Shown: piece after piece, positions 101 to 30,520 of the stretch
How the letters are laid out: each line of letters begins with the position of its first letter
How positions within the stretch are numbered: position 1 is the stretch's first letter
Source: a virus
Length of the DNA stretch: 30,520 nucleotides
Virus record (IMG/VR): IMGVR_UViG_3300030099_006396
Coordinates: 1-30,520 of that record
Strand: one strand, 5' to 3'
Translations under genes and position numbers: made by a program
Notes under the pieces: model-generated
Database searches by the model: none
Told to the model about the DNA's origin: nothing
The model's input: only the letters and a program-made list of their open reading frames with translations

Positions 101-2780
101 TGTTCTACCAGTTTTTGCTAGAAGAATGATTGATAAAGGCACAAGGGTGTCAGCTACACACGAAATAATTCTTCAGTTACAAGCTGCTGGTAAAACAATG
201 GATGACATCAGTATCATGACTGCAAAAGAAATAAAAGATACAATAAGATTCCCACCCGGTGGCACACCCTATCTTACAAACATGAGAGAATTTGAAAACA
301 TAGTTGGTCAGTTTTTTGATGACCCTGACATTATAAAAAGAGCAAGTGCTGCCAGCCGAGAAACACAGCAAGGCATTGCAGCATTAGACTACACCACCAG
401 CTGGAGTATGGAAAAGGTTGGAACAGCAATTGAGTTAATCAGAAAAAATAATCCAGCACTGGTTATGAGGCAAGCAAAGAACTTGGAAGATGTTGTTGCA
501 TCATTTATAATTCAGAAAGAAGCAAACAGAATCGTCAATCGCGCAATAAAAGAAAACTTTGCAACAGACGCATTAGCATTCAGACTTGATGAGGGTATAA
601 GAATTCTTGATAGAGATTTTCCTCTGCCACCAAAAGTAGATGCTGATGGAAACATAATTGTCAGACAGCCAAGTTATGGTGACATACAAGGTTTCAGAGA
701 TTCTTATCGTGATTATCTACAAGCTGAAGTATCTGACCGTGTTGTAGGTAGTGGGTTTGGTTTGAGAACTATGGCCGGTGGACCAGGTGTTATGAACACT
801 CTTGTTAGAATGCCTCAACTCGACCCATTTCAAGCGCAAGTTTTTGCTTTCTTATCTAGAGCCTCTTCCTCGATGGGTCCTAAACCAGTTTTATTTGATG
901 CGTTTTTGGATGCAGCAGAAGGTGGATACGTAAATACTTTGGCATCTTATGTTGATACACTTTCATCACGCTTCAAGAATCTTGACCCTGCTGGTGAGAT
1001 GGGTTTGAAACTTAGAACGATTGGTGACACAGATGTCGTGCGTCCTTTATCACAGTTTGAACTAGATGCAATCAATAGTTACCTCAGAAAATTTGAGGCT
1101 GGTGATAAGACAATCAGTGATAACTTTGCAAAATTACAAAGACAACAAGCAAAAGGACAAGATGCCATCGACATGATGAATTATTATGCCAACGGTTTGA
1201 GAAGAACCTTTGTATCTGGACAGTTAGGTGGTAAGTATTTACCTAACATTGCTTATCAAACGGAAAACTTACTTACTGCTCCGATAATCGCTTACGTAAC
1301 AAATCCAAAGTATGTTGCAATGGCACTGAGACAGATACCAGAAACACTACTCGGACTTACTCCTTACCGTAAACTCAGATACATGGCTGCTGCAAAACCA
1401 GATTCGATACTACCTGGCACATCATTTACATACAGTCAGATTTACACAGAATTTACAAGAAGAAACTTAGGTGTCAGTAATGCTGGTCTCAACCTTGGTG
1501 ACTCATTCTATCGTGACTTACAGAAAGAAGCAGCTGGTTGGAATCGATTTACCAGAGGTGTTCCAGGTTATCAAGGATTCATCAAGTCTGTTACTGATAA
1601 GAATTTTTACCTTGGGTTTGCTGATTACGTTAGAAGAGGTATTATGGACGTTGCAGATGGTGCTGCAGAGGTTGGTCGACCATTCAGTCCGACAATGTCA
1701 CCATTTATGAAGTGGGCTGATGAAACAGATAGAGCATTTAGAGAAGCAACATTTATCAGAGCACTACAAAATGGTGAATCACTAGAATCTGCTGCAAAGA
1801 GTGCAAGAGAAGTTTTCTTAGATTACGGTATGCTTCCACCTCAGGCCAAACAAGGATTTATGAAAGCAACATTGTATCTGTCATTTACATACGCATCTTC
1901 AGCAGAAATGTTACGTGCGATGGGTAGTATCGGTGGTGCACAAAGAGTTGCAGCAATGGCTAACTTCCACAGACAATTGGCAAGAAATGCAGGTGTTTGG
2001 TATCACCAAGGTGACACATCTGCACAGGCGTTGTGGTTAGAAACAGGAGTAGGTGAAGCACAAGGTAAAGAATTTGATTATGTCAATACATACATGAGGT
2101 CACCTTTCATGGGTAACCTTGTCAACATGGGTAGCTTAATTGGTTTTGGAACAGCAATCGCAACAGGTAGACAAGAAGATGCAGCAGAAAGAGCCAAAGA
2201 AGGTATCTCACAGTTTGTATACATTCCACTTCTAGACTTCTTGAAAGAACTAGATACTGATTATAAGAAAGGTGTTCCAGCAAAACAAATCTTCAGAATG
2301 AATGAAGGTATTTATGACAGTCAGTTTCTATCATTACAACCTGTCAACATGTTTATGGCTATGATGGCAGATGGTGCTGATGCAAACTACTGGTTTGATA
2401 GGTATGACATTGAGGTTCGACCTACAGATAGACGAGTTCCTGGTTCACCAACATTCAATGATTATCAATTCAGATTTAGAAGTTCTGCTGGATACAATAC
2501 TTATTTGTTTGACCAACTGATGATGGCCAAAGGTGGAACACAAAGAGGTTTCAATGATTACTACAATGCATTGGTTCTAGCAGGTGTGATTGACATACCA
2601 GATGGCTTTGAATTATACTATCAAGGACCACAAGGACAACCGTCACTTTATCAGGGATTTGAATACTTATTCTTAAAGAAGCGTCCTATTCGTGTTCCAA
2701 AAGAGATAGAGATAGAGTATCGCGCTTTGAAAGAATCTCAACGACGTTCTGAAGAGCAACTAAGGAAATTTAAGAAATGA
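1..2780 (+). CDS. Giant ejection-type virion protein, C-terminal part
   Basis: This frame is open from the first base (codons in phase from position 3) and stops at 2780, giving about 925 residues. A TTG at 93 could be read as a start, but it has no ribosome site and the frame is open upstream. Joined in frame to 27426-30520, the whole protein is 1,924 residues. The part here is rich in short helices and aromatic, amphipathic stretches, for example around LPNIAYQTENLLTAPIIAYV and the segment after AKQGFMKATLYLSF. I see no protease, lysozyme or transglycosylase motif. It is the third of three consecutive ejection-like genes, matching the place of T7 gp16 (about 1,300 residues) in podoviruses. 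The role in DNA ejection or inner core is inferred from position and size only. Its stop overlaps the next ATG (ATGA at 2777). Confidence 0.85.
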   Translation, partial: QVDDNIGRLERTTKGAFGNVASSQLIIADQLLDVLPVFARRMIDKGTRVSATHEIILQLQAAGKTMDDISIMTAKEIKDTIRFPPGGTPYLTNMREFENIVGQFFDDPDIIKRASAASRETQQGIAALDYTTSWSMEKVGTAIELIRKNNPALVMRQAKNLEDVVASFIIQKEANRIVNRAIKENFATDALAFRLDEGIRILDRDFPLPPKVDADGNIIVRQPSYGDIQGFRDSYRDYLQAEVSDRVVGSGFGLRTMAGGPGVMNTLVRMPQLDPFQAQVFAFLSRASSSMGPKPVLFDAFLDAAEGGYVNTLASYVDTLSSRFKNLDPAGEMGLKLRTIGDTDVVRPLSQFELDAINSYLRKFEAGDKTISDNFAKLQRQQAKGQDAIDMMNYYANGLRRTFVSGQLGGKYLPNIAYQTENLLTAPIIAYVTNPKYVAMALRQIPETLLGLTPYRKLRYMAAAKPDSILPGTSFTYSQIYTEFTRRNLGVSNAGLNLGDSFYRDLQKEAAGWNRFTRGVPGYQGFIKSVTDKNFYLGFADYVRRGIMDVADGAAEVGRPFSPTMSPFMKWADETDRAFREATFIRALQNGESLESAAKSAREVFLDYGMLPPQAKQGFMKATLYLSFTYASSAEMLRAMGSIGGAQRVAAMANFHRQLARNAGVWYHQGDTSAQALWLETGVGEAQGKEFDYVNTYMRSPFMGNLVNMGSLIGFGTAIATGRQEDAAERAKEGISQFVYIPLLDFLKELDTDYKKGVPAKQIFRMNEGIYDSQFLSLQPVNMFMAMMADGADANYWFDRYDIEVRPTDRRVPGSPTFNDYQFRFRSSAGYNTYLFDQLMMAKGGTQRGFNDYYNALVLAGVIDIPDGFELYYQGPQGQPSLYQGFEYLFLKKRPIRVPKEIEIEYRALKESQRRSEEQLRKFKK

Positions 2781-3115
2781 GCAAAAAAGCAAAAGACGCC
2801 AAGAAAAGATTGAAGGTTAACAAACCCACACGTTCTTACAAGAAAGGTAAGAAGAAGATGGTTGTTGTTATCGACCCGAAAACAGGCAAAAAGAAGTTGA
2901 TACATTATGGAGCCAAAGGTTTTGGTCACAACATCAGTAAAGCTGCACGTAAATCCTTCAGAGCACGTCATAAGTGTGACAAGCAGAAAGATAAAACAAC
3001 AGCAGTTTACTGGGCGTGTAAAGATTTATGGTCCGCATCATCACCAAAAAAGACTACAGGAACGAAAGGACGTGTAGCAAAAAAGAAACGTAGAACTCGG
3101 AGGAAAAAGAAATGA
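2777..3115 (+). CDS. Small basic Lys/Arg-rich protein with RxSFRARHxC / YWACKDLW motif
   Basis: 112 residues. The start ATG overlaps the stop of the giant gene, so translation is probably coupled. The two ends are strings of Lys and Arg. The middle (about residues 40-85) holds a compact conserved-looking domain: HYGAKGFGHN, then KSFRARHKCDKQKDKTTAVY followed by WACKDLW. I recognise this signature from small proteins of tailed phages, where it is usually of unknown function. Two Cys and two His in the core could bind a metal, but this is not shown. It opens a cassette of five very basic small genes at the end of the late region. A role in binding the packaged DNA or in lysis would be speculation. 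Confidence 0.85.
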   Translation: MSKKAKDAKKRLKVNKPTRSYKKGKKKMVVVIDPKTGKKKLIHYGAKGFGHNISKAARKSFRARHKCDKQKDKTTAVYWACKDLWSASSPKKTTGTKGRVAKKKRRTRRKKK

Positions 3116-3171
3116 AAGATTGTCAATGTCAATGTGAATGTTGTAAGGAGTGTCCTAAATGCAACGGATAA
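3112..3171 (+). CDS. 19-residue Cys-rich micropeptide
   Basis: A tiny frame starting ATG at 3112 inside the stop of the preceding gene (ATGA), reading MKDCQCQCECCKECPKCNG. Seven of 19 residues are Cys, in CxCxCxCC-xx-C-xx-C spacing, like a miniature metallothionein or zinc knuckle. A strong ribosome site (GGAGG, 3099-3103) sits 8 bases upstream, and the next gene starts inside its end with its own AAGGAG. These features argue for real translation, but such a short frame could also be only a coupling leader for the next gene. The function is unknown and metal binding is an inference from the Cys content. Confidence 0.55.
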   Translation: MKDCQCQCECCKECPKCNG

Positions 3172-3314
3172 AAGAATGGATGTCCGCCAATAAGGTTTCT
3201 GTGACCTTTATGGGTGGAGTAATAGTAATTAGCACAATGTATGGAACATGTTCATACGACCCAACGTCGTCAACGCCAGAGCCACAAGAAGAACAAGGCG
3301 AGGAGTTACCATAA
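3159..3314 (+). CDS. 51-residue membrane-anchored or lipoprotein-like peptide
   Basis: It starts ATG at 3159, 8 bases after AAGGAG (3145-3150), and ends TAA at 3314, sharing one base with the next ATG. Layout: short charged start (MQRIKEWMSANK), hydrophobic segment of about 18 residues (VSVTFMGGVIVISTMYGT), Cys31, then a Pro/Glu-rich tail ending EEQGEELP. This resembles a small lipoprotein such as an Rz1-type outer spanin (short, one Cys, Pro-rich tail). However, the residues before Cys (Tyr-Gly-Thr) are a poor lipobox, so a simple single-span membrane peptide is equally possible. No second spanin partner is evident next to it. The unbroken start/stop coupling supports it as a real gene. Confidence 0.65.
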   Translation: MQRIKEWMSANKVSVTFMGGVIVISTMYGTCSYDPTSSTPEPQEEQGEELP

Positions 3315-3478
3315 TGCCATACTCAGAATACAGTCCAAAACAAAAGAAGTTAGCAGCTATCAGACCACCTCGTAAGAAAATTACAAGAGCTGATTTGAAT
3401 GCACTAAGAAGAAGAAGAAAAAACAAGAAAGGAGCGGTTGTCAAACATGCCACGTCGAAGAAAGTCAAGAAAGCGTAA
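3314..3478 (+). CDS. 54-residue basic protein
   Basis: The frame is open further upstream, but the start is set by AGGAG at 3301-3305, 8 bases before ATG 3314, which also shares its A with the previous stop. The N-terminal half reads MPYSEYSPKQKKLAAIRPPR and the C-terminal half is nearly all Lys and Arg with an RADLNALRRRRKNKK helix. No known domain is recognised. The high charge suggests nucleic-acid or membrane contact. It is the second basic gene of the 2777-4166 cassette and is tightly linked to both neighbours. Confidence 0.75.
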   Translation: MPYSEYSPKQKKLAAIRPPRKKITRADLNALRRRRKNKKGAVVKHATSKKVKKA

Positions 3479-3680
3479 GTCGCTACCAAAAGGTTATTCT
3501 GCACCACGTGGTTCAAGCCGTGAACGACTGATTCGTAGAGCAGCAGCACTCTACAAAGCAGGTAACAAGAAAGCTGCACAAAGATTACGAGAACAAATGG
3601 AGGAACGGGAACGTGCCAAAGAAAAAAAGAAAAAAGACAAACGTCGCCGAAGCACTAAGAAAAAAAGCCGCAAAAAGTAA
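3447..3680 (+). CDS. 77-residue strongly basic helical protein
   Basis: ATG at 3447 gives MPRRRKSRKRKSLPKGYSAP and a central helix (about residues 20-52) with RLIRRAAALYKAGNKKAAQR, followed by a Glu/Lys coiled stretch and a poly-Lys/Arg tail. AAGGAG ends 12 bases before this ATG, which is long; a TTG at 3438 is the alternative start. It overlaps the previous gene by 32 bases and the next by 68 bases in another frame. The composition is protamine-like. No family is recognised. Confidence 0.7.
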   Translation: MPRRRKSRKRKSLPKGYSAPRGSSRERLIRRAAALYKAGNKKAAQRLREQMEERERAKEKKKKDKRRRSTKKKSRKK

Positions 3681-3897
3681 ATTCACTCCAGCGCAACTGC
3701 GTAGAGTTTATAATCGTGGTTTGGGTGCCTATACTTCTAGTGGTTCTAGAAAAGGTATGACACCTCATCAGTGGGCTATGGCTCGTGTCAACAGTTTTCT
3801 GAGAGGAGGCCCTGCCAGAAAGGTAGACATGCCAATGTTCAGAAAGAAAAAGAAATCAACAACTAAAAAAACAAAATCTAAGAGCAGGAGGAAATAA
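3613..3897 (+). CDS. 94-residue basic protein with SGSRxGMTPHQWAMARVNSF motif
   Basis: It starts at GTG 3613 with GGAGG (3599-3603) 9 bases upstream; no ATG is available before the conserved part. Poly-Lys ends flank a compact domain at about residues 23-70: FTPAQLRRVYNRGLGAYTSS, then GSRKGMTPHQWAMARVNSF, then an Asp-containing tail. This VYxRGLxAY...GSRxGxxxxQWAxARVxSF pattern recurs in phage and large-virus proteins of unknown function (I believe the Pfam family DUF5824; to be confirmed). It overlaps the previous gene by 68 bases across A-rich runs, where ribosomes could slip. Confidence 0.85.
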   Translation: MPKKKRKKTNVAEALRKKAAKSKFTPAQLRRVYNRGLGAYTSSGSRKGMTPHQWAMARVNSFLRGGPARKVDMPMFRKKKKSTTKKTKSKSRRK

Positions 3898-4166
3898 TGC
3901 CAGGATACTCAGTAGGAAAACCAGTTAAGCGAAAGCCAATGAAGAAGAAGAAAAAGCCGATGAAGCGTAAGCCGATTCGTAGAAAGAAGACTAAAAAAAA
4001 AGCAAAAAGTAAAGAGGTCAAATTGACCAAGGCGCAAAAGGCTAGGTTAGCCAAACACGCTGCACACCACTCTGGAAAACACATGACTATGATGCGTCGT
4101 ATGATGAGGAGTGGAAAGTCTTTTGCTGCTGCACACCGAGCAGCGATGAAAGAAGTAGGAAAGTAA
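3897..4166 (+). CDS. 89-residue Lys-rich protein with His/Met-rich helical C-terminus
   Basis: AGGAGG (3886-3891) lies 5 bases before ATG 3897, which shares one base with the previous stop. The N-terminal 45 residues are mostly Lys, Arg and Pro in a repeated KPMKxKxxP pattern. The C-terminal half contains HHSGKHMTMMRRMMRSGKSF followed by AAAHRAAMKEVGK, a short motif I associate with small phage and large-virus proteins of unknown function. The composition resembles DNA-condensing proteins. It closes the basic cassette; a 41-base gap with a new ribosome site separates it from the tail-fibre genes. Confidence 0.82.
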   Translation: MPGYSVGKPVKRKPMKKKKKPMKRKPIRRKKTKKKAKSKEVKLTKAQKARLAKHAAHHSGKHMTMMRRMMRSGKSFAAAHRAAMKEVGK

Positions 4167-4207: not shown

Positions 4208-4636
4208 ATGGGTAAATCAGGACATTTTGTTCATAGAGTAGTCGATAGCACACTCAACGTCACATTTGGAACATCGTATGATTCAACTAAAAACATTTTT
4301 GTGGAGCTTAATAAGGTTACCGATGGTAATCAGAAGGCCTTGTTACGAAACAAAAAAGTATACAGCGGAAACATACAACTTATCAGACTCAAAGGAACCG
4401 TATCAGGTGCTCCAACTCAAATTACACTCAAAGGTTATGAAGACAGTGGAGGAACTAAGATGCTTATTCCACCGTCTACAGGACTTCTTGAAGATGCAGT
4501 TTCAGGAGCCACAAAATCCGTCGCTTTCAAAGTTGACGTGTTCCATTCATCCAAAGTTGACGACCTCTTTTTCTTTGCTAAAACCGACACTGGAAGTTTT
4601 ACAGTTACAGAGGTTCAGGTCAGCTGGTTCGAGTAG
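4208..4636 (+). CDS. Small beta-rich virion or tail-appendage protein
   Basis: 142 residues, ATG 4208 with GGAGG (4197-4201) 6 bases upstream. The sequence alternates short polar and hydrophobic strands (for example TQITLKGYEDSGGTKMLIPP and DTGSFTVTEVQVSWF), typical of a beta-sandwich. No signal peptide or membrane segment is seen. It heads a three-gene group of beta-rich proteins ending in a repeat-containing fibre, so a role in the tail fibre or the capsid surface is likely. That role is inferred from context, and no specific family is recognised. Confidence 0.75.
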   Translation: MGKSGHFVHRVVDSTLNVTFGTSYDSTKNIFVELNKVTDGNQKALLRNKKVYSGNIQLIRLKGTVSGAPTQITLKGYEDSGGTKMLIPPSTGLLEDAVSGATKSVAFKVDVFHSSKVDDLFFFAKTDTGSFTVTEVQVSWFE

Positions 4637-4647
4637 GGGAGGTCACA

Positions 4648-4929
4648 ATGTCAGAGATAGCATTTGGTGGACCGTTCATTCCCATACAAGGGTCAGACCT
4701 AGAATCAGAAGATTTGTCGAGTCAAATCGGCGCAAACAATCAAACTTTTACAGTTTCAAAACCCTTTCAAGAGATACGTATCTTTGTATTCCTAAATGGC
4801 CTGTTTCAAGGTCCTGCTGGGGGTTCTGAAATAACAATCAATTCAACAACAACTTTTACTATTGCCACGGTGCCGCAGACGGGCGATAATTTATCGGTGA
4901 TTTTTTCACCACTAGTCAAAATAACATAG
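4648..4929 (+). CDS. Small beta-domain protein related to the next gene's C-terminus
   Basis: 93 residues, ATG 4648 behind GGGGAGG. Its central and C-terminal part (IRIFVFLNGLFQGP, then TTFTIATVPQTGDNLSVIF) has the same pattern as the last 60 residues of the next gene (FVMVFRNGLLQ, YTVSTSGGTTSVTF, SASDKLEIRYL). The pattern is a strand with V-F-x-N-G-L, then two strands with T-x-T-F and a final D-x-L-x-I-x-[FY] strand. Such a domain is common at the tips of fibres and appendages of tailed phages. The gene probably encodes a free-standing copy of that domain and may sit at the fibre tip or be a paralogue. Confidence 0.78.
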   Translation: MSEIAFGGPFIPIQGSDLESEDLSSQIGANNQTFTVSKPFQEIRIFVFLNGLFQGPAGGSEITINSTTTFTIATVPQTGDNLSVIFSPLVKIT

Positions 4930-4939
4930 GAGACAAATT

Positions 4940-5845
4940 ATGGCTATTCAAATTAGAGGCGTCCAGATTCAGGACGGCAGTATCGCGAGTGGTAAACTTG
5001 CAATTTCTGGACAAACATTCGACTTCAGTTCAGGAACTCTTCGTGCTGGAACACCATCCGGCACCACAGACGTAGCAAACAAAGCTTACGTTGACGCACA
5101 ATTACCAGATTCATTTGCTGGTGGAGATGGTATCTCTATCACTGATGGTGCAGGAACAGATACTATTGCTGTTGACCTTGCAACCAATCCTGGTTTACAA
5201 TTCACTTCCAACAAATTGGACTTGAAAGTAAAATCAGAAACTGGTGGTAGCATTACCAAAGATGGTGATGGTATCTACATTGGTGATAACGCTATCGGAA
5301 ACGCTAAGCTTGCAGGTTCTATTGCTAATGCTAAGTTGGCTAACTCAACCATCTCTGGTAAGGCACTTGGTGGAAACCTTGATAACTTAGTTGATGGAAA
5401 CGGTATCGCTGACTTTACATACAATGGTTCTGCTGGTGTATCAATCGCACTTGACCTTGATGGTTCAACACTTGCATTGAGTGCTGATGGTATCAAGATT
5501 AATAACGATGGTGTTGGAAATGCACAAATTGCAGATAATGCAGTTCAAAATGCGCAAATCCAAAACGGTGCGGTTTCTATCGCTAAGTTGGCGTTCCAAG
5601 CACGTGTTGACCAACCTTCAACTTCTGGTGGTTCTACCGCAGTATTTGCTTTGTCAAATCAAGTAGCACCTGAATTTGAATCATTTGTAATGGTATTCCG
5701 AAACGGTTTGTTACAACAGTTGAAAGCTTCATCACCTGCTGATGATTCTGAATACACAGTATCAACCTCTGGTGGAACTACATCTGTTACTTTCGGTGCT
5801 AACATCAGTGCTTCTGACAAGTTAGAAATCAGATACTTAGCGTAG
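4940..5845 (+). CDS. Tail-fibre-like protein with NAKLA-type repeats
   Basis: 301 residues, ATG 4940 with AGGAGA upstream. The N-terminal 50 residues (MAIQIRGVQIQDGSIASGKL...ANKAYVD) look like the attachment and oligomerisation start seen in many phage fibres. Residues about 55-215 repeat Gly/Asn/Asp-rich units such as IGNAKLAGSIANAKLANSTI and VGNAQIADNAVQNAQIQNGA, typical of trimeric beta-helical fibre shafts. The last 60 residues form a beta-domain shared with the preceding gene. Host-receptor contact is the likely role. No chaperone or peptidase domain is visible. Confidence 0.85.
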   Translation: MAIQIRGVQIQDGSIASGKLAISGQTFDFSSGTLRAGTPSGTTDVANKAYVDAQLPDSFAGGDGISITDGAGTDTIAVDLATNPGLQFTSNKLDLKVKSETGGSITKDGDGIYIGDNAIGNAKLAGSIANAKLANSTISGKALGGNLDNLVDGNGIADFTYNGSAGVSIALDLDGSTLALSADGIKINNDGVGNAQIADNAVQNAQIQNGAVSIAKLAFQARVDQPSTSGGSTAVFALSNQVAPEFESFVMVFRNGLLQQLKASSPADDSEYTVSTSGGTTSVTFGANISASDKLEIRYLA

Positions 5846-5854
5846 AGGTGAATC

Positions 5855-6070
5855 ATGGACCCAATGGCTATCCTTGAGGTTTTAGGACCAAGTGGTATAG
5901 CTGTTGCGGTCTGTCTCTACCTTCATCGTTCTTTTGTTTCTTACTCAACCATTATGGTCGATAAACTTTTGCAGGAGCAAAAAGAAGATAGAAAAGTATT
6001 TGAACAGGCCGTTGACAAGTTAGACCGAAGGCTTGAGTATCTAGAAATTCTTTTACGAGAGAAGAAGTAA
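5855..6070 (+). CDS. Putative holin (small membrane protein with coiled coil)
   Basis: 71 residues, ATG 5855 with GAGGTG upstream. A hydrophobic N-terminal segment (about residues 8-28, LGPSGIAVAVCLYLHRSFVS) is followed by a charged coiled coil (KLLQEQKEDRKVFEQAVDKL and on). Size and topology resemble BhlA/UviB-type holins. The position as the last gene before the late terminator fits a lysis role. No endolysin gene is adjacent or recognised elsewhere. An inner-membrane spanin-like protein is an alternative. Confidence 0.62.
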   Translation: MDPMAILEVLGPSGIAVAVCLYLHRSFVSYSTIMVDKLLQEQKEDRKVFEQAVDKLDRRLEYLEILLREKK

Positions 6071-11722: not shown

Positions 11723-11795
11723 GAATAGTTTTACTTTTTGTCGTAACTGGATACCTATAGTAGTGGCAGAACATTTTGTTTCACAAAGGATGATA

Positions 11796-12173
11796 ATGGT
11801 AGCGTATTTTATGAAGATGGATAGAGATACCCGTCGATACTACAGAAAACACTGGGGATGTTCTGACCCTCAGTTGTTTGATTATGTCGCCTGTCAAAAC
11901 GGTTACACCTGTCTACCGCAAGACGAAGAAGATGAACAGCAAGAGTTGAGGTGGAAGACAATGGATTGGATACACACTGCGTTGACGAGGTTGTCATCTG
12001 ATGAATCTTTCGTGTTGGAAAGGTATTATTTAGAAGGTGACACATTACAATGCATTGCAGATAAACAGGGAACATCCGTATCAACGGCGTTCAAGCGTAG
12101 AGATAGGGCCCTGAAAAAAATGCGTATTATTATGGAGGAAATAAAAGATGAAGTTTTCGAAGAGTGCCACTGA
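11796..12173 (+). CDS. Sigma region 4-like helix-turn-helix protein, candidate late regulator
   Basis: 125 residues from ATG 11796, chosen because AAAGG lies 6 bases upstream; the frame is open to a GTG at 11763 without a ribosome site. Residues about 66-112 follow the sigma-70 region 4 pattern: LTRLSSDESFVLERYYLEGD, then TLQCIADKQGTSVSTAFKRR, then a basic helix DRALKKMR. That is L-x-x-L, then E-x-x-V-L-x-x-[RY]-Y, a turn, I-A-x-x-x-G-x-S-x-S recognition helix and R-x-x-x-A-L-x-x-[LM]-R. Phage proteins of this kind (sigma-like or ArpU/RinA-like) often switch on late genes. It lies directly before the terminase genes. Small terminase subunit is the main alternative. Confidence 0.75.
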   Translation: MVAYFMKMDRDTRRYYRKHWGCSDPQLFDYVACQNGYTCLPQDEEDEQQELRWKTMDWIHTALTRLSSDESFVLERYYLEGDTLQCIADKQGTSVSTAFKRRDRALKKMRIIMEEIKDEVFEECH

Positions 12174-27425: not shown

Positions 27426-30400
27426 ATGCCAAATCCAGATGGTTCACCAACGGCTGATGAACTAAACAAACTTAGTGAAAGCCAGAAACGATACTACCAG
27501 ATGTTACTTGATGAAGAGGACATTACTGGTGCAAATAGCTTTGTTAGTTCTATAATTTTTGAATTACCAGAAGCAGAAGGTGGTTCTTCGTCACCTCAAG
27601 GAAACATAGAAGTTTTGCCATCATTGACACCGAAACGTGTAATACCAGGTTTGTCAGACCCAGGCACATTTGTTCCTGCTCCTGAAATGACAGCAGAAGA
27701 AGCAAGTAAAGATGAGTTTATGGCAGGTCCGCTTATCATACCTTCACTGCTTGATGATGCATCACAGGCTTCATACAATGCTGCTGTAGAACGATACAAA
27801 GCAGAAGGCTTTCCATCAGAAGAAGATTTTGGTCGTGTATTCGAAGCAGAATTCAACATGATTTTTGAGAATGAAGGTAAAACAGTTCCAGTCGGTCTTG
27901 ATTTAACTAATCCAGATTATGGTGAATACCAACTACGTTTACTAGAATACTCAGACCAAAGAATGCCAAAGGTTACTGCAGAATCCAAAGCAAAAGAAGA
28001 AGTGTTCGGTGTTAAGTCACCAAGAAAACCACGTGCTGTTGGACCATTTGCTGTAGAACCAACACCAGTTACTCCAGGTCTTTTACAAACGCAACCAGAA
28101 TTACAAGCAGAAATGACACTAGGTCAGGTTGCAAAAGATGCGTTATCACCTCAGACTCTTGTATCAGGTGCTGCAGAAAGAAGAAGAAAAGCAATCCGAC
28201 AGATACAGAAAGAAAACTACTTCGAAACTGTTGATGAAGTGCGAAGCATGATTGAGTTAGAAAACATTCAGTTTGATGATGACTTGATGGCTGAATACAA
28301 TGAAGCACTAAAGAAAGGTGAAGAAAGTGCCAAACAATACTTACGAGAAAACGTAAATGCTGATGTCGAAGAAGCAGAGATGCGATACTTCGAAGAATAC
28401 TACAAAGCACAAGCAATTGCAATCATAGTTGCAGAATCAGGACAAGACCCATCAATGGTTGCAATGACGTATGATACTGATTCACTTGACTTAATAATTC
28501 CAGATGAAGATGAAAGAGCTGCAATAAAGAAAAAAGCAGATGTAGGTGCAACAAGACTTACAAGACGTCACATTCATGACATGACAGGTTATAATGAAGA
28601 CGATAAACGGTATGGAAAGGATACTCCAAAAGAAGCTACACTAAAAGAAAGGTTTCCTCGTGCAGAAGAAGATACCGGTATACTCGAAGATTTGAAAAGG
28701 ACAGGTGTATTTGCACTAGAAAACCTTACAACAACTCGCTATGATGCAAATGCTAGACAAAGATTCTTTGACATGGGTATCACAAATGACCCTGATGCTA
28801 TTACAGAAACTTCAGGTATGGCACTAGTAAGAGACATAAACCTACCACTCAGAGCTGTTGTCAATCCTGCAATTAGTGGTTTAGAAAACTTAGGTGTTAT
28901 TGATAGACTGGATGCAGAAGAAGAAGTAGACACAATGCTTCCAGCAAAAAGAGTAGAACTTACAGAAGATGCTGAAGGTTTGGATGTTGTTGATGCTTAT
29001 CTACGTGAGATACTGGTAGAAACTGCGACAATGAGAACATTAGGTAATGACCTTGGACAATTGACAAACATTGCTGGTGTAGAGATTGATGATGGTGCAC
29101 GTGATTATCTTGTTGGTGCTGGAACGATTGCAGAATTCTTTATTCCTCTTGTTCCAGGTAGTAAAATACTTTCAGTGCCATCAAGAACTGCTGGCTCGCT
29201 GCTACAAAAAGGGACAGTAAAACTAGGAACGAAACTACAGAAACCTGCATTAGTAAAAGCAGCACCAGTAATCAGAGAAGGAACAGAATTTTTGGTTGAT
29301 ACAATCGGTTCTGGTGGTAATCTAGTCTTTCCAGTTGCTCGAGGTGCAAAAAAGTTAACATCAAAAGCAGCAAGAACCACACCACTGACAAACACAAAAC
29401 TACGTTCAGCAGGTGTAGCAGGTAAGTTAGACAATGGTGACGTTGTTGCTGATGCTATTTCAACTAGTCGACTTGAGGACTTAGTTACAGATACAGCAAC
29501 TGTAAGAGCAAGAATAGCTGATGAGATTGCAGACCAAACAGTAGCACTAGAAGCAAGAGCAAGTGGTGCAACAGGTAGAGAGATGCAAGACTTAGTATCT
29601 GATGGTTTGGTAAGTCAAAGAAGTGTGAATCGTGCAATGATTATTGAACCGCAAGAAGCTGGTAAATTAATCGATGACATGATAAAAAGTGGTGATTCTT
29701 TACTTGTTCCAGCAGCAACATCAGCATCCAAAAGAAGTAAGTCAGCTTTCAAAGCAACTGAAGATTTGGCTGAAGATTTGTTTGATAATCCAGCACGTTC
29801 TAGAACTTTTCAATCCAGCGAATCAGTTACAGCTGCAAAACAAGCAACAAGAAGTGTTGTAATAGAAAAATTATTAGATTACGGTCTTGGTGATTATGTT
29901 CTTGTTACAGATAGAATCATAGCTTCAAACGAAAAATTTAGACAGATACTACCAGAACTTAAAAAATACATGACAACTGATGGTAAGTCTGCATTCTTCA
30001 ACGCAACAGATGATGGTTTTATAATCAACACAAACGGTTATAATAACATGGTAGATGCTGCCGAAAGATTACGAGACCCATACCTTACAGAACTATCAAG
30101 AGCACACACAAGAGGTGAATTACTTACAACTGGTGAAATGTCGTATGCAACTAACAGACTTATGGATGATTTTATTCTTCGTTCTGACCCCAGTTCTTTT
30201 GTTGCAACAGATGCAAAGATAGCAAAAAGAGCTGCTGAACCACTAGAAAGAAGAACAGGACCTGTTAGAACTGTAGAAGATGCGATAGCTAAGATGAGAG
30301 GAACATTTAAGTTTATCGACGACCTTGCTGAAAAAGCAGCAAACAGATTCTACAATAAAGCACCAGATAATCTAGTTGTTCAAACACAAGAAAACGCAGT

Positions 30401-30520
30401 AGCTACATCACGATTCAAACAGCAAGTTGATGATAACATAGGTCGATTAGAAAGAACCACAAAAGGTGCGTTTGGTAATGTTGCATCTAGTCAGCTTATT
30501 ATTGCTGACCAGTTGTTGGA
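27426..30520 (+). CDS. Giant ejection-type virion protein, N-terminal part
   Basis: ATG 27426 follows the previous stop with no gap, with GGAG 5 bases upstream. The frame is open to the last base (1,031 codons and two bases) and continues in frame at position 101 on the circular genome, for a total of 1,924 residues. The N-terminal 400 residues are acidic and helical (AAERRRKAIRQIQKENYFET). Near residue 560-580 there is an amphipathic or membrane-active stretch (LVGAGTIAEFFIPLVPGSKI). After it come Ala-rich helices. No lytic transglycosylase pattern is visible, unlike T7 gp16. Size and place as the last gene of the ejection block suggest it is released into the host during DNA entry. Confidence 0.88.
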   Translation, partial: MPNPDGSPTADELNKLSESQKRYYQMLLDEEDITGANSFVSSIIFELPEAEGGSSSPQGNIEVLPSLTPKRVIPGLSDPGTFVPAPEMTAEEASKDEFMAGPLIIPSLLDDASQASYNAAVERYKAEGFPSEEDFGRVFEAEFNMIFENEGKTVPVGLDLTNPDYGEYQLRLLEYSDQRMPKVTAESKAKEEVFGVKSPRKPRAVGPFAVEPTPVTPGLLQTQPELQAEMTLGQVAKDALSPQTLVSGAAERRRKAIRQIQKENYFETVDEVRSMIELENIQFDDDLMAEYNEALKKGEESAKQYLRENVNADVEEAEMRYFEEYYKAQAIAIIVAESGQDPSMVAMTYDTDSLDLIIPDEDERAAIKKKADVGATRLTRRHIHDMTGYNEDDKRYGKDTPKEATLKERFPRAEEDTGILEDLKRTGVFALENLTTTRYDANARQRFFDMGITNDPDAITETSGMALVRDINLPLRAVVNPAISGLENLGVIDRLDAEEEVDTMLPAKRVELTEDAEGLDVVDAYLREILVETATMRTLGNDLGQLTNIAGVEIDDGARDYLVGAGTIAEFFIPLVPGSKILSVPSRTAGSLLQKGTVKLGTKLQKPALVKAAPVIREGTEFLVDTIGSGGNLVFPVARGAKKLTSKAARTTPLTNTKLRSAGVAGKLDNGDVVADAISTSRLEDLVTDTATVRARIADEIADQTVALEARASGATGREMQDLVSDGLVSQRSVNRAMIIEPQEAGKLIDDMIKSGDSLLVPAATSASKRSKSAFKATEDLAEDLFDNPARSRTFQSSESVTAAKQATRSVVIEKLLDYGLGDYVLVTDRIIASNEKFRQILPELKKYMTTDGKSAFFNATDDGFIINTNGYNNMVDAAERLRDPYLTELSRAHTRGELLTTGEMSYATNRLMDDFILRSDPSSFVATDAKIAKRAAEPLERRTGPVRTVEDAIAKMRGTFKFIDDLAEKAANRFYNKAPDNLVVQTQENAVATSRFKQQVDDNIGRLERTTKGAFGNVASSQLIIADQLL
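30421..30520. repeat. Right copy of the 100-base end overlap
   Basis: The copy matches positions 1-100 except for the second base. The mismatch falls on the third codon position of a Gln codon (CAG here; the left copy, with only AA visible, would be CAA), so it is silent. Confidence 0.95.

What the first reader, a model, noticed from the sequence alone, without database searches (positions are those of the whole stretch)
2777..4166. Cassette of tiny, extremely basic genes after the ejection block
Five overlapping genes (112, 54, 77, 94 and 89 residues) are each roughly a third Lys and Arg or more. Three carry compact motifs (FRARHKC...YWACKDLW; GSRxGMTPHQWAMARVNSF; HHSGKHMxMMRRMM) of types I associate with phages and large viruses without known function. 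Co-location suggests a joint job: protamine-like DNA condensation in the head, co-packaged host-chromatin or RNA binders, or membrane-lytic peptides replacing a missing lysin.
Basis: partly seen in the sequence, partly recalled or inferred. Interest (0 to 1): 0.75.

Follow-up and report, generated by a model that had tools for sequence, protein, structure and literature searches.

The report
Phage cassette of tiny basic proteins
A small aquatic phage carries a run of tiny, strongly positively charged proteins that many unrelated aquatic phages also keep together, most likely to be packed with the DNA inside the virus head, which matters because phages are generally thought not to use such DNA-coating proteins.

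Summary
Five ORFs at 2777-4166 (112, 54, 77, 94, 89 aa) are 34-47% Lys+Arg, net charge +18 to +38, and under purifying selection. All seven form one overlapping chain directly behind a 1,924-aa ejection-type gene. Domains A and E also occur fused to head or virion proteins (portal-MuF, XkdF-type protease, cytidylyltransferase). In large phages about a third of these proteins start with T4-type capsid-targeting-like peptides. Nearby genes are mostly head genes. Best reading: capsid-internal, DNA-bound proteins, a small adaptor domain plus a polycationic tail, working like T4 internal proteins or protamines. Packaging in this phage and DNA binding are inferred, not shown. The lytic-peptide idea is not supported: relatives carry the cassette beside ordinary lysins. 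E is Pfam DUF5824; no description of the cassette was found in the literature searched.

The parts
2777..3115 (+). Family A, 112 aa, net +38; FRARHKC...YWACKDLW domain with basic N- and C-terminal stretches
   Evidence: dN/dS 0.04; phrog_7595 1e-12 and phrog_220 'minor head protein and DNA pilot' 9.8e-12; AF2 model pLDDT 82, about 90 in residues 11-90: beta hairpin plus two helices
3112..3171 (+).
   Evidence: similar peptides in L002, L003, L005, L006, L130, L175, L263, placed behind A or behind E
3159..3314 (+). 51-aa membrane-anchor type protein with acidic tail (net -4)
   Evidence: counterparts at the same place in L002, L005, L258
3314..3478 (+). Family C, 54 aa, net +18; MPYSxYSPKQKKLAAxxPPRKKITxADL head plus basic tail
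   Evidence: 571 of 600 scanned stretches in viral contigs confirmed as relatives; dN/dS 0.32
3447..3680 (+). Family D, 77 aa, net +29; LPxGYxAPxGSxRE...LYKxGNxxAAxxLRExMEE plus basic tail; overlaps C and E
   Evidence: in every D locus fetched (22 of 22) family E is present; five contigs (four of them near-identical) carry D-E fusions
3613..3897 (+). Family E, 94 aa, net +30; Pfam DUF5824 (GSRxGMTPHQWAMARVNSF) with basic ends
   Evidence: PF19141 43.4 bits, cut-off 25; dN/dS 0.12 and 0.03; AF2 four helices, pLDDT 78
3897..4166 (+). Family F, 89 aa, net +32; MPGYxVGKPxKRKPMKKKKK polycation joined to a HHSGKHMxMMRRMMxxGKSFxxAHRxAMKxVGK domain
   Evidence: phrog_31838 3.8e-8; the two halves are separate genes in some relatives such as L175
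3..2780 (+). Context: 3' part of the 1,924-aa ejection-type gene (5' part at 27426-30520 of the circular record); its stop overlaps the start of A by 4 nt
   Evidence: 98-bp end repeat; continuous ORF across the junction
4208..5845 (+). Context: next genes (142, 93, 301 aa), the last tail-fibre-like
   Evidence: phrog_892 tail fiber protein 4.1e-6 for 4940-5845; the 142-aa gene is conserved in L002 and L005

Best explanation
The cassette makes a set of late, stoichiometric proteins that go into the phage head with the DNA. Each is a small conserved domain joined to Lys/Arg-rich stretches. I propose that the small domains tie the proteins to the prohead interior (portal, scaffold or protease side) or to one another, while the polycationic stretches bind and partly neutralise packaged DNA, and perhaps accompany it into the cell with the ejection proteins. 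Shown here: real genes, one coupled chain behind an ejection gene, repeated co-occurrence, fusion to head or virion proteins, head-gene neighbourhood. Shown by others: an A-containing portal-MuF protein (phage CL131) is in virions; cytidylyltransferases with CTS-like starts, related to the A/E-carrying ones, are in cyanophage virions. Inferred: packaging of the stand-alone proteins, DNA binding, adaptor role.
For: Co-occurrence far above decoys, all on one strand. Fusions: A inside portal-InPase proteins (CL131, with MuF, and L294), E at the C-terminus of XkdF-type Peptidase_S78_2 proteins (591 confirmed stretches), E and A on cytidylyltransferases in Melnitz and L090/L091, E on that of HTVC008M. 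CL131 portal ORF012 is among the structural proteins found by LC-MS/MS (PMC6293099); cytidylyltransferases are in S-SM1 and S-CREM2 virions (PMC3037559, PMC10665884), and those of S-ShM2 (same gene cluster as S-SM1) and S-CREM2 begin MKKFSTFISEA and MKNFSSFLTEA. CTS-like N-termini in 10 of 32 cassette proteins of large phages, against 39 of 10,993 other ORFs (pattern chosen after seeing examples). Neighbours within 1.5 kb: portal, minor head, head morphogenesis, maturation protease, scaffold; at 3.5-7 kb replication genes appear too. Net charge +147 for one copy of each: about 41 copies of each would match 10% of the phosphates. T4 internal-protein lysines contact packaged DNA (PMC3012670).
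Against: No virion proteomics was found for a phage with the stand-alone cassette. The window proteins have no CTS and no prohead protease was recognised. The virion-detected cyanophage cytidylyltransferases lack A and E themselves. AF2 models of A and E match no solved fold significantly; the best for A, Cren7, has E 0.65. In some phages cassette members lie beside lysis genes. Late genes lie near head genes in general. PMC3281028 notes no evidence that basic proteins contribute much to neutralising phage DNA.
Confidence: 0.55

Rival explanations
1. They are packaged or early-acting proteins whose target is in the host (RNA, ribosome, nucleoid, restriction enzymes), as T4 IPI and Alt are; the basic tails hold them on DNA or carry them through the tail.
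For: T4 internal proteins are basic, carry a CTS, and at least IPI is an anti-restriction protein. The cassette sits directly behind the ejection gene.
Against: The same families occur in phages of Pelagibacter, Prochlorococcus, Methylophilales, Roseobacter, Flavobacterium and Actinomycetia, which argues against one narrow host target; T4 IPs differ greatly between relatives.
Confidence: 0.2
2. They are assembly factors: adaptor domains that recruit partners during prohead building, with basic tails binding acidic scaffold, not DNA; they may leave the mature head.
For: Fusion of A to the portal and of E to a protease; scaffold, minor-head and protease genes nearby.
Against: Purely polycationic 31-41-aa members with KKPAKKP-like repeats are hard to explain without nucleic-acid binding.
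Confidence: 0.15
3. They are membrane-lytic cationic peptides that replace a lysin.
For: No lysin was recognised among the window ORFs scanned with PHROGs; some relatives have cassette members in the lysis region.
Against: Those relatives have lysins as well (HTVC111P lysozyme, L004 Amidase_2 2.1e-20, HTVC106P peptidase M15A), so the cassette does not replace one; A and E are predicted compact domains, not amphipathic peptides.
Confidence: 0.04

Closest known systems
T4 internal head proteins IPI, IPII, IPIII
   Same: Small basic proteins, several different ones per phage; cassette relatives in large phages carry CTS-like N-termini
   Different: No recognisable sequence relation found; window members have no CTS; T4 IPs are poorly conserved while A and E are shared across many phages
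Protamine-like and basic core proteins of eukaryotic DNA viruses (baculovirus P6.9, adenovirus core proteins)
   Same: Very high Lys/Arg, small size, proposed charge neutralisation of the genome
   Different: Here a compact conserved domain is joined to the basic part, in a motor-packaged tailed phage
Ascovirus P64 (2-cysteine adaptor plus basic repeats) and PBCV-1 A278L/A282L basic adaptor proteins
   Same: Architecture: short virus-specific adaptor domain next to a polycationic tract, found on virion DNA (PMC6163548, PMC3281028)
   Different: Different domains; PF08793 was not reported for any protein scanned
Pfam DUF5824 (PF19141); PHROGs 7595, 28338, 31838, 220, 3041
   Same: E belongs to DUF5824; A, E and F match the unnamed PHROGs; phrog_220 and phrog_3041 contain A and E within larger proteins
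   Different: Function of these families is not described; none describes the cassette
Cyanophage virion cytidylyltransferase (T4-GC190)
   Same: Homologous N-terminal domain to the A/E-carrying enzymes of Melnitz and HTVC008M, with a CTS-like start
   Different: Cyanophage versions examined lack A and E

Membership tests
Pfam DUF5824 (protein E only) | Score over the curated cut-off | tested here: met
   43.4 bits against 25
Pfam DUF5754 (protein A relatives) | Score over the curated cut-off | tested here: inconclusive
   best 20.7 bits against 27.4, E 0.00043 in L047; the window protein itself not reported
T4-type internal head proteins | N-terminal capsid-targeting sequence removed by a prohead protease | tested here: not met
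   window proteins and 0 of 377 small-phage members carry the pattern; 10 of 32 large-phage members do
T4-type internal head proteins | Basic, small, inside the virion with the DNA | not testable with these tools
   basic and small: yes; presence in virions needs proteomics
Protamine-like DNA-condensing proteins | Very high Lys/Arg content, small size | tested here: met
   34-47% Lys+Arg, 54-112 aa
Protamine-like DNA-condensing proteins | Binds and condenses the genome in the particle | not testable with these tools
   experiment needed
Virus 2-cysteine adaptor basic proteins (P64 type) | PF08793 adaptor motif | tested here: not met
   no such match in the Pfam scans
Lysin-replacing lytic peptides | Present where a lysin is absent | tested here: not met
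   HTVC111P, L004 and HTVC106P have both

The most novel reading that the evidence does not exclude
A widespread, modular set of phage chromatin-like proteins: small tailed phages of aquatic bacteria carry their genome as a nucleoprotein built from several dedicated adaptor-plus-polycation proteins and a metal-binding Cys-rich peptide, and larger phages reuse the same adaptor domains to bring enzymes into the head.
Probability: 0.25. Interest if true: 0.85.

Novelty: new variant of a known kind. Interest (0 to 1): 0.62.

Why it matters
Dense phage DNA is thought to be neutralised mainly by cations and polyamines; PMC3281028 states that there is no evidence that basic proteins contribute much. 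A conserved module of highly basic proteins in several phage types would make that directly testable. If the small domains are capsid-entry adaptors, they would also offer a marker for which uncharacterised phage proteins travel in the virion, beyond T4-type targeting sequences.

Tried and rejected
Pfam gives nothing for A, C, D or F in the window. Foldseek of the A and E models against the PDB gave no match at E <= 0.001; the Cren7 hits to A (E 0.65) cover about 35 residues and are not used as evidence. Literature search for DUF5824: no paper. P-SS2, a siphovirus with a published virion proteome, has none of the five families in the 102 kb scanned, so it could not serve as a test. S-CREM2 ORF155 and ORF156, virion proteins beside the cytidylyltransferase, do not contain A or E. 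A search for a proteomics paper on Flavobacterium phage immuto found none in the library. The 84,980-genome scan for E gave four contigs from MAGs and a single-cell genome; three of them also carry other cassette families, so they look like phage contigs. Lysin replacement rejected as stated. No Rfam or tRNA features in the window.

Full report
What is there. The window is a circular virus record of about 30.4 kb (98-bp end repeat) with a large terminase, a T7-type head-tail adaptor/portal, a scaffold-like and a major head protein. The gene before the finding is a 1,924-aa ejection-type ORF running across the record's ends. Its stop codon overlaps the start of the first basic gene by 4 nt. From 2777 to 4166 follow seven overlapping genes: A (112 aa), a 19-aa Cys-rich peptide, a 51-aa membrane-type protein, C (54), D (77), E (94) and F (89). 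Purine-rich Shine-Dalgarno-like stretches precede most starts.

Is it more than chance? A, C, D, E and F are 34-47% Lys+Arg, while other ORFs of 130 aa or more in the window are 6-18%. dN/dS against the nearest relative is 0.04-0.32.

Co-occurrence. I built HMMs from the cassette genes and scanned all ORFs of the fetched contigs. Of 80 E loci 50 have A, 14 have F, 13 have C; of 80 C loci 43 have A; of 22 D loci 22 have E and 19 have A. All 210 neighbouring pairs are on the same strand and nearly all within 1.5 kb. Reversed-sequence decoys gave no hit. In the 80 best A loci the figure is lower (10 with C, 6 with E), so A also lives alone. Gene order varies (ADE, ADEC, ACDEF, EFA, ECFA and others), so the set is kept while the order is shuffled. 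Named carriers of one or more families include T4-like phages HTVC008M, Melnitz, C48C1 and immuto, the siphovirus Kolga, MED4-184, and the podoviruses HTVC106P, HTVC111P and HTVC202P.

Fusions and neighbours. In Melnitz, E and A are two domains of one cytidylyltransferase protein that begins MKKFSEIIEAR; in HTVC008M they are on adjacent genes. In Aphanizomenon phage CL131 and contig L294, A lies inside a portal-pyrophosphatase protein, with MuF in CL131. E is the C-terminal part of XkdF-type proteins (Peptidase_S78_2 8.7e-16 in L009) in a family with 591 confirmed stretches. Genes within 1.5 kb of the cassette match mainly portal, head morphogenesis, minor head, maturation protease and scaffold families; at 3.5-7 kb primase, polymerase and helicase families appear among the commonest. 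Large-phage members often start with peptides shaped like T4 capsid-targeting sequences (10 of 32, against 39 of 10,993 other ORFs; 0 of 377 small-phage members). The pattern was defined after seeing examples, so this is supportive rather than a clean test.

Published virion data. The CL131 portal (ORF012, with the A domain) is among the structural proteins found by LC-MS/MS (PMC6293099). Cytidylyltransferases homologous to the N-terminal part of the A/E-carrying ones are found in virions of S-SM1 and S-CREM2 (PMC3037559, PMC10665884), though the cyanophage versions examined lack A and E, and the S-CREM2 authors note possible co-purification. No proteome of a phage with the stand-alone cassette was found.

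Structure. AF2 gives A a confident beta-hairpin plus two helices with a looser basic C-terminal end, and E four helices with loose ends. Neither matches a solved structure significantly. The picture is a compact domain with cationic extensions. Some relatives also carry separate 31-41-aa polycations such as MPKHYGKPMKKKPAKKPMPKKPVKKPVKKKKKKK, similar in style to histone H1 tails (my own reading).

Mechanism. The simplest account is a set of capsid-internal proteins whose small domains give attachment and whose tails bind DNA. The charge is enough to matter: about 41 copies of each would balance a tenth of the phosphates. In T4 the lysines of internal proteins contact packaged DNA (PMC3012670). 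Eukaryotic parallels with adaptor plus basic tract are ascovirus P64 and PBCV-1 A278L/A282L. Packaging and DNA binding here remain inference. A lysis role is unlikely because carriers such as HTVC111P and L004 have normal lysins beside the cassette.

Novelty. E is Pfam DUF5824 and A, E and F have unnamed PHROG families; no paper in the library names DUF5824. The kind of thing, basic internal proteins, is known from T4 and eukaryotic viruses. The conserved multi-gene cassette in small tailed phages appears undescribed in what I could search; most subscription-journal papers were not searchable.

Noticed in passing
window 3112-3171; L002:5473, L003:6249, L005:5494, L006:2167, L130:6830, L263:7460: A 16-21-aa Cys-rich peptide (for example MKDCQCQCECCKECPKCNG, MKNQCDCECPCCKDGQCQK) recurs in the cassette at different positions; possibly a metal-binding mini-protein below usual gene-calling size.
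   Followed up: partly
window 3159-3314: 51-aa protein with one hydrophobic stretch and an acidic tail, conserved between A and C in L002, and in L005 and L258; could be a small spanin or holin-type protein.
   Followed up: partly
L003:5701-5817, L006:1604-1714, L130:6273-6377, L258:6882-6989: Pure polycations of 34-38 aa (53-55% Lys+Arg) with KKPAKKP-like repeats beside the cassette; equivalent to the N-terminal half of F.
   Followed up: partly
L013:2411-6592 and L294:3504-7019: Portal proteins with family A and an inorganic pyrophosphatase domain built in (plus MuF in CL131): an enzyme in the portal protein.
   Followed up: no
L449:5842-6588: E domain joined to a second small phage module (GFTDVGRARMAQLARGGSVSREVVGKMRSFFARH...GYPSPGRVAWDAWGG), suggesting a wider repertoire of such adaptor modules; DUF5872 on an A protein in L017 is another.
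   Followed up: no
L282:5446-5577 and L448:875-1024: MPLRKGKSQKIISANIRKLMREGKTLKQAQAIALTTAKKRKRK-type basic mini-protein near the cassette, weakly similar to family F.
   Followed up: no
window 5855-6070: 71-aa protein with one hydrophobic stretch followed by a charged helix, holin-like by eye; no lysin recognised among the window ORFs scanned.
   Followed up: no
window 11763-12173: 136-aa sigma-factor-like protein (phrog_36 8e-8, phrog_351 2.9e-7) just upstream of the terminase gene.
   Followed up: no
window 1-30520: 98-bp direct repeat at the two ends (3-100 and 30423-30520): a complete circular or terminally redundant genome of about 30.4 kb; no DNA polymerase was recognised among the large ORFs scanned.
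   Followed up: partly
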